From Candidatus Latescibacterota bacterium (GTDB taxonomy: Bacteria; JAAXHH01; JABIQT01): DNA of 18,085 bases. Numbering within the stretch: the first letter of the stretch is position 1; each line of letters opens with the position of its first letter. A model generated the notes under the pieces. The model ran no database searches and had not been told where the DNA came from. It saw only the letters and a list, made by a program, of their open reading frames with translations. Shown here piece by piece: positions 12,098-15,823 of this stretch. The stretch covers positions 1 through 18,085 of the forward strand of contig JABIQT010000067.1 of assembly GCA_018667995.1 (NCBI GenBank). The letters are read 5' to 3'. The translations under genes were made by a program, and so were the position numbers.

Positions 12098-12724
12098 CTA
12101 ATATTTAATCGTACATCCGTAGGCTTTGGTAGCCGAGACGGGCACAGCCTTACCCTCGAGGACGGCGTCCAGACTCAGAGTCATATAATTGTCAGCTTCT
12201 TCTATGTCAGACTGTCTGGAAGACGCAATTGAGTCAATCGCGCCCATGTAGACAAGCGTACCGGCTGGATTCACTATGTACATGTGCGGTGTATTGGTGG
12301 CGCCGTACAGGCGCCCGACTGAACCGTCATCGTCTCGCAAATACGCCGTTACGGTTGAACCATGGTTCTTACGGCGTCTCTCAATTTCAGCGTTCTCGAA
12401 ATTTCCTTGCGAGCCCGGCCGGTTGGAGCATATGGCAAGCCAGATAACCCCCTTGTCCGTGTACTTCTTCTGTAACGCTTGCATATTGCCGCTTTCATAG
12501 TGCTTCCGGACAAAGGGACAATCATAATTGATCCATTCAAGGACCACGTGCATTCCTCGGTAGTCAGACAATTTCACAGACCGTCCATCTGTGTCGGTCA
12601 GTTCAAAATCCAGCGCGGCCTCGCCGACGCGGACCTTGCCTTTGGCCATGGGTTCGGACGTCAGACCAAAGAGAACAACAGCAGCTGTGACCACTATCAA
12701 TCCTGAAAGAGCATACCGTTTCAT
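12098..12724 (-). CDS. exported redoxin (AhpC/TSA thioredoxin-like) protein
   Basis: A 208-residue thioredoxin-fold protein with an N-terminal signal peptide or anchor (hydrophobic residues 6-22). The redoxin domain spans about 32-165: ALDFELTDTDGRSVKLSDYRG, then INYDCPFVRKHYES with single redox Cys69, and the cis-proline loop ATNTPHMYIV (Pro146). The tail ends AYGCTIKY, giving a second conserved-looking Cys204 that could form a disulfide with Cys69. This matches envelope-associated redoxins common in environmental bacteria; peroxidase or thiol-exchange activity is likely but unproven. The start ATG 12724 has a GGGGGG ribosome binding site 7 bases upstream; the frame opens earlier at 12748 but without support. 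It follows dsbD by 39 bp, so the two are probably cotranscribed, and DsbD could keep Cys69 reduced. Confidence 0.88.
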   Translation of the reverse strand: MKRYALSGLIVVTAAVVLFGLTSEPMAKGKVRVGEAALDFELTDTDGRSVKLSDYRGMHVVLEWINYDCPFVRKHYESGNMQALQKKYTDKGVIWLAICSNRPGSQGNFENAEIERRRKNHGSTVTAYLRDDDGSVGRLYGATNTPHMYIVNPAGTLVYMGAIDSIASSRQSDIEEADNYMTLSLDAVLEGKAVPVSATKAYGCTIKY

Positions 12725-12763
12725 GTATCTACCCCCCATACAACCCATTGGAGTGTCTCCAGA

Positions 12764-14938
12764 TCACCTGACGCTAGCCGTGCTGAGCGGAGTCACACTT
12801 TCAAGTGCCTCCAGTACTGCTCCCGGCGTAAGGATCTCTGATAGAATAAGCGGAGCTGCGTCTTTCGATCCCGTATAGAGCACATAGAGCGGGACACTGT
12901 TTCGGCCGAATTTCGCCAATGCGCTTGTGATTTCTGGATCACGAGAAGTCCAGTCGGCTTTCAGCATCACTACACCGAGCTCCTTGAATTTCGCCACAAC
13001 CGCGCTGTTGTGGAGAGCCACGCGCTCATTGACCTGGCAGCTCAAACACCACGCCGCCGTGAAATCCACAAATACAGGTTGGCCGGACCGTCGTAATTCA
13101 TCAACCCGTTGTGATGAAAAAGCCTCCCAATTTGGCCCCGAATCAGCCGAAGTTGTACGAGCCATGGCCCCGCCACCGGACGATGCACCGGGAGGGAGAA
13201 TTGACAGTGTGTAGCCAAGGCTTCCAGCCACGACAATGACAGCCACAGCCCTTGCCAACAGCCGAGTATTATCCGCGGCGGAAATGGTACCCCATCGGCC
13301 CAGAATCCAGGCGCCGATCCCGAGGAATACGAGCAGGCCTAACAGCATGGTCATGCCGATCACACCCGTCTGGCTGCCAATCACGAACACAAGCCAGACT
13401 ACGGTCGCCATAAGGAGGAAGCCCATGAACTGCTTGAAAGACTCCATCCAGGCACCGGGCCTCGGCACGAATTTAAGCAAAGATGGGACTGACGACAGCA
13501 ACAGGTAGGGAGCCGACATTCCAAGCCCGAGGAATCCAAAAATGAGAAGTGAGTCAACAGTTGATTGAGTTAGTGCAAATCCAAGTGCCGACCCCATGAA
13601 CGGCGCGGTGCAAGGCGTTGCAACCACCGTGGCGGTTACGCCACTCAGGAATGAACCTGTCATTCCTGACCGGTTGTCCAGCTTGGCCCCGGCGCCGATG
13701 AGAGAGGTACCCAATTCAAATACGCCAAATAGACTCAGACCGAATAGGAACAAGAACGCCGAAATAACCGTAACAAACAGCGGCGACTGAAGCTGGAAGC
13801 CCCATCCGAGTTGCTCGCCGCCAGCACGCAGCGCTATCAGAACGCCGGCTAGTGTCAGAAAAGAGAGGAGTACGCCAACAGTGAACATAGCTCCATGCTG
13901 CCAGCTCTTGTTGTCATCTTCACCTGCTTGCTGCACGAATCCCAGTATCTTGAGCGAGAGCACGGGTAGCACGCAAGGCATCAGATTAAGAATCATACCG
14001 CCAATGAAAGCAAATCCAAGGGCCAGCCAGATGGAACTGATTTCCGTATTCACCTTAGCCACGGATGCCGCTATGGGGGTCAACGCGGTCGACACCGGCA
14101 CACTCACTTCGATGGCGTGCTCCGAGCCCGGGCCTCGCCAACCATCTTCCGAAACGAGCACTCCGGTAATCCGCTCGGGGGGACTGGACATCAGCATGCT
14201 GACGTTTGCCGAGATCTGATACAGGTTCGCACTTTTGCCAAACGATTGTGGATCGAAATGGTTGATTAACGAGCCATCATAGGGAAAGAACTGCATCGAA
14301 GAAATGTCACCCGAAAACCAATCGGGAGCCGTCGCCTGGATAACAACCAAGCTATCATTGACGGAAGCCTCCAAGGTCCAATCATGTTCAACGAGTGGTA
14401 AATTCCCGCGTGCGGTTGCGAATCCCTCAGCCCATGCCGTATTGGCCTCAGGCGGGGATTCGGTAACAGGAAGAGACACTGTATAGGCGGCTGATCCGGG
14501 AATGCAGACCTCTTCGCAGACCAGCCAGTCTCCATAGGCGCTAATCTCAATTGACGTACCGGGCTTCAGGTTGGCCGGTGGGGTGATCTCCGTAAGAAGA
14601 TAAACTTCGCCTTCATAAGCGTAGTTGGCCAGGGGCGGCAGATCGATCTGCTCAGGATAGGGCCAATGAATGGGTCCGGCTTCAAACCCCTCGGGCAAGG
14701 TCCACTCTATGCTCGTCGCATAGGCGGCATCACCTGGATTTCTCCAATACACGTGCCAATGCTCGTCCATCTTCATCCGTAGCGCCATCCAGAAAGGACG
14801 GCCAGGTTGAATCGACGATTCCTCGGCTACGAGTTCGCTCTCCATGTAGTCGGTACGCACCGGCTGGGCCTGAGCTGAGGCGGCTACAAACAGGAACGCG
14901 CAGAAGGCTGCAATTATGAATCTCTGGTATCTTATCAT
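12764..14938 (-). CDS. dsbD: thiol:disulfide interchange protein DsbD (ScsB-like type)
   Basis: A 724-residue inner-membrane protein passing electrons from cytoplasmic thioredoxin to periplasmic thiol proteins. Parts in order: signal peptide about 1-24; periplasmic alpha domain with DWLVCEEVCIPG (Cys141, Cys145), the spacing typical of ScsB-like variants rather than E. coli DsbD; a membrane core from about 303 to 585 with eight or so helices, holding NLMPCVLPVLSLK (Cys322) and VATPCTAPFMG (Cys443), the transmembrane redox pair; and a C-terminal thioredoxin domain with FTAAWCLSCQ (Cys631, Cys634) and cis-proline in NSVPLYVLY. All three cysteine pairs are intact. ATG 14938 follows AAGAGACC. The redoxin gene is 39 bp downstream. 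Upstream, 180 bp separate it from the TlpA-like gene, so all three may share a transcript or dsbD may have its own start; no firm promoter was seen in 14939-15118. Confidence 0.94.
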   Translation of the reverse strand: MIRYQRFIIAAFCAFLFVAASAQAQPVRTDYMESELVAEESSIQPGRPFWMALRMKMDEHWHVYWRNPGDAAYATSIEWTLPEGFEAGPIHWPYPEQIDLPPLANYAYEGEVYLLTEITPPANLKPGTSIEISAYGDWLVCEEVCIPGSAAYTVSLPVTESPPEANTAWAEGFATARGNLPLVEHDWTLEASVNDSLVVIQATAPDWFSGDISSMQFFPYDGSLINHFDPQSFGKSANLYQISANVSMLMSSPPERITGVLVSEDGWRGPGSEHAIEVSVPVSTALTPIAASVAKVNTEISSIWLALGFAFIGGMILNLMPCVLPVLSLKILGFVQQAGEDDNKSWQHGAMFTVGVLLSFLTLAGVLIALRAGGEQLGWGFQLQSPLFVTVISAFLFLFGLSLFGVFELGTSLIGAGAKLDNRSGMTGSFLSGVTATVVATPCTAPFMGSALGFALTQSTVDSLLIFGFLGLGMSAPYLLLSSVPSLLKFVPRPGAWMESFKQFMGFLLMATVVWLVFVIGSQTGVIGMTMLLGLLVFLGIGAWILGRWGTISAADNTRLLARAVAVIVVAGSLGYTLSILPPGASSGGGAMARTTSADSGPNWEAFSSQRVDELRRSGQPVFVDFTAAWCLSCQVNERVALHNSAVVAKFKELGVVMLKADWTSRDPEITSALAKFGRNSVPLYVLYTGSKDAAPLILSEILTPGAVLEALESVTPLSTASVR

Positions 14939-15118: not shown

Positions 15119-15823
15119 TCATCGGCCCGCGGCGATCTGTACCTTCTGCCAATCGAAATCCACCTCGCCGCTATAGAACTTCTCCGGATTCTCCAGAGCC
15201 CAGATCTGTTTTCGCACAATCCAGTTGTTTGGTACCAGAGACACACTGGAGCGCCAAAGTGTCAAGGCGGATTTCAGATCACCGGATTTGAATCGTTCCA
15301 GGCCATCACGATACAGTCGGCGTGCCTCTTCGTCTTCAAAGGCATAACCCCGCTCCGATTGAGCAGCTAAGTCCTCAAGATTCGGACTGCCGGCAAATCC
15401 TTCTGCCAACACCTTATCAGCCGGCATCCGGATATCAAATCCCCCAAACTTCATGTACCGAATTATCCCCGTTTCATCGACAAAGACGGCGTTGGGGATG
15501 GCCTGAAATCCAAAGAGATCTCCGAAGAGATTCGCGCTATCAACCACGTTGGCATAGGTCGCGTGGGCGTGCGCTACAAAGGCAGTGGCCTTCACCGACC
15601 CTTGAAAGTCAATGGCCACAGAGAGTACTTCGAATCTGCTTCCTCTATTATCAACGTAAAATTCCTGCCACTCCGGCAGTTGATCACGGCACGCTCACCA
15701 GGATGCCCACATGAAGATAATGAATCTCTTGCCGGCAAAATCCTCAAGCCCAACAGCCTGACCTTCCATGGTTGGCAATTCAAATATGGGCATCTTATCA
15801 CCAACCTGCAGTACAGCTGTCAT
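15119..15823 (-). CDS. candidate selenoprotein: TlpA-like thioredoxin-fold protein with in-frame TGA at the redox site
   Basis: Translated through one TGA, the frame gives a 234-residue TlpA/ResA-like protein. Start ATG 15823 has GGAGG five bases before it. LQVGDKMPIFELPTMEG (5-21) and FIIFMWASW (35-42) lead into TGA at 15697-15695 (codon 43), where the first redox Cys of WASWC normally lies. Then come Ala44, Cys45 and RDQLPEWQEFY in unbroken frame, the cis-Pro segment AIPNAVFVDETG, and a C-terminal region (PNNWIVRKQIWALENPEKFY). No other stop or frameshift occurs. A SECIS-like hairpin lies just after the TGA. If decoded as selenocysteine the motif is U-A-C, one residue shorter than CxxC. Otherwise this is a pseudogene giving a 42-residue stub, or a codon deletion or sequencing error. 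No signal peptide is seen. It lies upstream of dsbD on the same strand. Confidence 0.6.
15665..15697 (-). promoter_or_regulatory. bacterial SECIS-like stem-loop with UGA
   Basis: On the minus strand the UGA (15697-15695) is followed after 20 bases by loop GGAGU (15674-15670), closed by the 5-bp perfect stem CUGCC (15679-15675) and GGCAG (15669-15665). The loop starts with two guanosines and its distance from UGA lies inside the roughly 16-37 base range known for bacterial SECIS elements. A further outer pairing, AUCAA (15684-15680) with UUGAU (15654-15650), is possible across a 10-base one-sided bulge. The stem is short and overlaps coding sequence, so chance is not excluded. Confidence 0.45.

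What the first reader, a model, noticed from the sequence alone, without database searches (positions are those of the whole stretch)
15119..15823. Candidate selenoprotein: TlpA-like thioredoxin fold with TGA at the active site
The only stop inside a 234-codon TlpA-like frame is TGA at codon 43, directly after FMWASW, where this fold places its nucleophilic cysteine. Frame, fold landmarks (cis-Pro loop, C-terminal block) and ribosome binding site are otherwise intact, which is unlike the neighbouring YwqK pseudogene with several lesions. Selenocysteine replacing a redox Cys in thioredoxin-like proteins is a well-known pattern. Ordinary gene finders would split this into a 42-residue stub and an N-terminally truncated protein.
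Basis: partly seen in the sequence, partly recalled or inferred. Interest (0 to 1): 0.88.

Follow-up and report, generated by a model that had tools for sequence, protein, structure and literature searches.

The report
Thioredoxin-like selenoprotein with UxC active site
A gene that looks broken by a stop codon is almost certainly an intact redox enzyme that carries selenocysteine, the 21st amino acid, in its active site; it is a divergent, unannotated member of a selenoprotein group already known from metagenomes.

Summary
On the minus strand, 15119-15823 is a 234-codon TlpA/AhpC-like frame whose only internal stop is TGA at codon 43 (15695-15697). Every full-length orthologue recovered (29 in named genomes at 33-53% identity, plus 3 more distant ones; Poribacteria, Latescibacterota and MAGs labelled Chloroflexota, Acidobacteria and Armatimonadota) has TGA at the same codon and none has Cys, although the DNA scan was set up to find Cys. 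A 5-bp hairpin with a GG-starting loop lies 20 nt after the TGA in all 23 distinct sequences. Its outer pair switched from C-G to U-A on three separate branches, by matched synonymous changes. It fits the published bacterial SECIS model. The source genome encodes SelA and a SelD that itself has TGA at its catalytic position. SelB and tRNA-Sec were not found in this fragmented, 85%-complete assembly, but same-order relatives carry them. Selenocysteine is therefore near certain. The kind is not new: 'Prx-like (UGC-containing)' selenoproteins (ocean survey, 2008) and NCBIfam NF041054 (WAxxUGC; score below its cut-off). This gene falls in a short branch without the exported N-terminal domain. Oxidoreductase chemistry is inferred; substrate and partner are unknown.

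The parts
15119..15823 (-). Selenoprotein gene: 234-residue TlpA/AhpC-like thioredoxin-fold protein, read through TGA at codon 43; own stop TGA at 15119-15121
15695..15697 (-). In-frame TGA, selenocysteine codon (U43), at the N-cap of the first thioredoxin helix
15689..15691 (-). Codon for Cys45, the likely resolving thiol of the UxC motif; invariant in the 13-row family alignment
15665..15679 (-). Predicted bacterial SECIS hairpin CUGCC-GGAGU-GGCAG, loop 20 nt after the TGA; compensatory C-G to U-A in L089, L136 and L137
15829..15833 (-). Likely ribosome-binding site GGAGG, 5 nt before ATG
   Evidence: read directly from the sequence
15119..15337 (-). C-terminal TPR-like helical region with the family motif NWIxRKQ(I/L)WAxE(N/H)P..FY

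Best explanation
The gene encodes a cytosolic selenoprotein. Ribosomes insert selenocysteine at UGA codon 43, guided by a SECIS hairpin 20 nt downstream, using SelA, SelD and (inferred) SelB and tRNA-Sec. The protein is a TlpA/ResA-like thioredoxin fold followed by a TPR-like unit. U43 sits at the N-cap of helix alpha-1, the nucleophile position. Most likely U43 attacks a disulfide or peroxide and the intermediate is resolved by Cys45 in the unusual UxC motif. The TPR-like tail probably binds a partner. Shown: frame, conservation of TGA, hairpin covariation, fold model, selA and selD. Inferred: actual Sec insertion, reaction, cytosolic location. Not known: substrate and electron donor.
For: All 29 full-length orthologues (33-53% identity) have TGA at this codon and none Cys; the scan patterns were built with Cys at that site, so the bias was against this result. 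Three more distant family members also have TGA. After the TGA, Leu49 is CTG or TTG and Gln53 is CAG or CAA in exact pairing register (29 CTG/CAG and 1 TTG/CAA in 30; background CTG 16%, CAG 43%). With the added sequences, 100% of cells pair, 3 have compensatory changes and 0 of 500 shuffles reach this; the three changed rows lie on separate tree branches. The hairpin meets the bacterial SECIS constraints listed in PMC13188914. Own genome: selA at 487 bits and selD at 373 bits, SelD with in-frame TGA at the catalytic position and its own hairpin. Same-order relatives have selB (5 of 5 checked; split over two contigs in G013) and tRNA-Sec (4 of 5). Model pLDDT 91.6; best VIA-align match the ResA-type oxidoreductase 4nmu, Z 19.0.
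Against: selB and tRNA-Sec were not found in the source assembly. SelA lacks the N-terminal ~70 positions of its model. The hairpin alone is not unusually stable against shuffles (z -1.16), much of its sequence is also fixed by the protein, and only one of its five pairs shows compensatory change. No protein-level evidence.
Confidence: 0.94

Rival explanations
1. Recent nonsense mutation, assembly error or pseudogene: the TGA is a real stop or a sequencing error in a former Cys codon.
For: Single MAG contig; raw reads were not available; selB and tRNA-Sec not in the assembly.
Against: The same TGA in 32 relatives from independent assemblies; purifying selection on both sides of the TGA; no other lesion; selD in the same genome is also a TGA gene.
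Confidence: 0.01
2. General or suppressor-tRNA reading of TGA (for example as Trp or Cys) rather than selenocysteine.
For: SelB and tRNA-Sec missing from the source assembly.
Against: TGA also ends this very gene at the position where relatives end; selA and selD are present; a conserved SECIS-type hairpin with compensatory changes; the site is the redox nucleophile of the fold.
Confidence: 0.02
3. It is a selenoprotein, but a peroxidase (peroxiredoxin-like) rather than a disulfide reductase. (This is a sub-question within the best explanation, not an alternative to Sec.)
For: Pfam AhpC-TSA and Redoxin match best; peroxiredoxins appear in the fold list (5enu, Z 18.5); the 2008 survey named the kind Prx-like.
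Against: The U43/Cys45 pair and WASW context resemble the WCxxC site of ResA/TlpA; the usual peroxiredoxin PxxxTxxC context (general knowledge) is not seen (FMWASWUAC); ResA-type structures score equal or higher.
Confidence: 0.3

Closest known systems
Prx-like (UGC-containing) selenoproteins, Global Ocean Sampling survey 2008 (PMC2398784); listed as 'UGC-containing TlpA disulfide reductase family protein' in the 2026 review PMC13188914
   Same: AhpC-TSA/TlpA fold, Sec followed two residues later by Cys
   Different: Here the middle residue is Ala (UAC), and in this branch it varies (A, G, T, K, I, V); the survey's sequences were not aligned here
NCBIfam NF041054 WAxxUGC_long
   Same: Best NCBIfam match, over residues 10-121 plus a second stretch; orthologues with the long N-terminal part match it too
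   Different: 121.8 bits against a cut-off of 300; the N-terminal ~80 positions of the profile are absent; UAC not UGC
ResA / TlpA / DsbE thiol-disulfide oxidoreductases
   Same: Thioredoxin fold, WASW context, nucleophile at helix N-cap
   Different: Those use CxxC; here UxC, plus a C-terminal TPR-like tail with a family-specific motif

Membership tests
Bacterial selenoprotein gene | In-frame UGA conserved across homologues | tested here: met
   TGA in 29/29 full-length orthologues and 3 distant ones
Bacterial selenoprotein gene | SECIS model of PMC13188914: loop 3-9 nt, stem 4-16 bp, G in first two loop positions, 16-37 nt from UGA, energy at most -7.5 kcal/mol | tested here: met
   Loop 5 nt (GGAGU), stem 5 bp, spacing 20 nt, -8.3 kcal/mol with 3 flanking bases (-6.7 for the bare 15 nt)
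Bacterial selenoprotein gene | Covariation in the hairpin | tested here: met
   One pair with three compensatory C-G to U-A changes on separate branches; 0/500 shuffles
Bacterial selenoprotein gene | selA and selD in the genome | tested here: met
   Both over cut-off, 487 and 373 bits
Bacterial selenoprotein gene | selB and tRNA-Sec in the genome | tested here: inconclusive
   Not found in an 85% complete assembly of 1165 contigs; present in same-order relatives
Bacterial selenoprotein gene | Sec detected in the protein | not testable with these tools
   Needs an experiment
NF041054 WAxxUGC_long | Score at or above the curated cut-off of 300 bits | tested here: not met
   121.8 bits; best relative here 181 bits
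UGC-containing Prx-like/TlpA selenoproteins | U-G-C motif in an AhpC-TSA fold | tested here: inconclusive
   AhpC-TSA met; motif is UAC, UxC in the branch; survey sequences not aligned
ResA/TlpA thiol-disulfide oxidoreductases | CxxC active site | tested here: not met
   UxC: U43, C45

The most novel reading that the evidence does not exclude
The short, apparently cytosolic UxC branch (window, L063, L064, L065) is a separate, obligately selenocysteine-using redox family with its own partner, held by the TPR-like tail, for which no Cys form exists.
Probability: 0.3. Interest if true: 0.45.

Novelty: new member of a known kind. Interest (0 to 1): 0.3.

Why it matters
Standard gene finders split this gene, so the enzyme is lost from annotation. 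The case gives clean comparative evidence of Sec in poorly studied uncultured phyla, in a family for which no Cys form was found here, which makes it a good subject for asking why Sec is irreplaceable in a UxC site.

Tried and rejected
Pseudogene or sequencing error: rejected by TGA conservation and selection. A frameshift or lost codon to explain UxC instead of CxxC: rejected, all relatives have UxC. A longer SECIS lower stem (columns 11-14 with 39-42): only 79% of cells pair, no excess over shuffles, so not claimed. A conserved operon with the neighbouring DsbD and redoxin: no homologue of the window's HutH, DsbD or sulfatases lies near the orthologues; the only matches are weak redoxin hits to the gene itself. 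SelB in own genome: candidates were a 388-residue GTPase next to a CysD-like gene (probably a sulfate adenylyltransferase subunit), other translation GTPases and an Era-like GTPase. tRNA-Sec candidates in own genome were tRNA-Ser and tRNA-Leu. Rfam on the window: nothing. Viral contigs: no relative. NF041054 members over cut-off: none in 384 genomes, so a direct comparison with that family's core was not possible. A first extraction of L135-L137 used the wrong strand and was repeated. The paper PMC12013261 is not held.

Full report
What is there. On the minus strand, 15119-15823 holds a 234-codon frame with one internal stop, TGA at codon 43 (15695-15697), in FMWASW-U-ACRDQLPEW. ATG follows GGAGG at 5 nt. 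The read-through protein matches Pfam AhpC-TSA (60.3 bits) and Redoxin (53 bits) over residues 6-130; the ORF after the TGA alone matches nothing. The best NCBIfam match is NF041054, 'ResA-like WAxxUGC motif-containing protein', a selenoprotein family, at 121.8 bits against a cut-off of 300.

Homologues. A scan of 84,980 species genomes with a three-row alignment gave 29 full-length relatives, 33-53% identical. All 29 have TGA at the same codon and none has Cys; one of them (L088) has a frameshift further on. The scan's pattern over this site was made with Cys codons, so it favoured Cys forms; the TGA forms were found through the C-terminal motif NWI[IV][RH]K. Three more distant relatives found with NF041054 also have TGA there. 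The motif is [WY][AG]SW-U-x-C-R with x = A, G, T, K, I or V. Against L063 the codons after the TGA have pN 0.30 and pS 0.73, and third positions change about twice as often as first or second, so the downstream part is selected as protein.

SECIS. From the TGA (base 1), bases 19-33 form CUGCC-GGAGU-GGCAG (15665-15679). RNAalifold picks exactly this helix in the alignment. Leu49 is CTG in 29 of 30 and TTG in one; Gln53 is CAG in 29 and CAA in that same one, against 16% CTG and 43% CAG elsewhere in these genes. After adding three sequences, all 115 cells pair, the outer pair is C-G in 20 and U-A in 3, and no shuffle of 500 does as well. The three U-A rows (L089, L136, L137) lie on separate branches of the tree, so these look like three independent compensatory events; support values on that tree are moderate. 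Loop size, stem, G position and spacing (20 nt) fit the published model (PMC13188914); the energy is -6.7 kcal/mol for the bare 15 nt and -8.3 with three flanking bases. Against random sequence the fold alone is unremarkable (z -1.16); the evidence is the covariation and codon choice. A longer lower stem was tested and not supported.

Machinery. The source genome (6.06 Mb, 1165 contigs, 85% complete) has selA (487 bits) and selD (373 bits). selD reads KTCG-TGA-AAKISP, TGA at the position of the catalytic Cys17 of E. coli SelD (position from general knowledge), with its own hairpin CAGUCC-GGUA-GGACUG. selB and tRNA-Sec were not found by family models, by a relative's SelB or by a relative's tRNA-Sec DNA. 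All five same-order genomes checked have selB over the cut-off and four have tRNA-Sec with anticodon TCA; in those four, selB (in G013 its C-terminal part, at a contig end) lies beside tRNA-Sec. One missing contig would therefore explain both gaps. SelA lacks the first 70 positions of its model and begins with its own ATG; this was not resolved.

Fold and domains. AlphaFold2 gives pLDDT 91.6. U43 is the residue before helix 44-59. The closest solved folds over residues 4-150 are ResA-type oxidoreductases (4nmu Z 19.0, 139 residues, 1.9 A; 3gl3 Z 18.6), nearly tied with peroxiredoxins such as 5enu (Z 18.5), so fold alone does not choose between them. Residues about 163-197 match TPR units. Poribacterial relatives carry about 170-195 residues before the motif, with a copper amine oxidase N-terminal-like domain (40.9 bits in L068) and what reads like a signal peptide. 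The window's protein has 42 residues there and no signal peptide by eye; it groups with other short forms (L063 and L064, 95/89; L065 next).

Mechanism. Best supported: U43 is the attacking selenol and Cys45 resolves. That U43 is the nucleophile follows from the fold; that Cys45 resolves is inferred from its invariance in the family alignment. Substrate and reductant are unknown; the neighbouring DsbD and redoxin genes are not conserved near the orthologues.

Novelty. 'Prx-like (UGC-containing)' selenoproteins were reported from the Global Ocean Sampling data in 2008 (PMC2398784) and are listed again in a 2026 review (PMC13188914). This gene is a divergent, unannotated member of that kind; formal membership in NF041054 was tested and not met.

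Noticed in passing
L056 (G000:C1058), minus strand, around base 2480: selD of the same genome is itself a TGA gene, TGA at the catalytic position, followed by hairpin CAGUCC-GGUA-GGACUG.
   Followed up: yes
L055:1512-2705 (G000:C455): selA begins with its own ATG but lacks the N-terminal ~70 positions of the SelA model; the frame upstream is an unrelated gene.
   Followed up: partly
window 12098-14938, minus strand: A DsbD-like membrane protein (724 aa) and a redoxin with motif DCPFVRKHY lie directly downstream of the selenoprotein gene; DsbD's best NCBIfam match is the selenoprotein TsoB model (far below its cut-off), but here the frame has no TGA.
   Followed up: partly
relatives G047:C158, G046:C245, G100:C14, G110:C1: Several other TlpA-like matches in distant genomes hold one in-frame TGA and could be further selenoproteins.
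   Followed up: no
   Followed up: no
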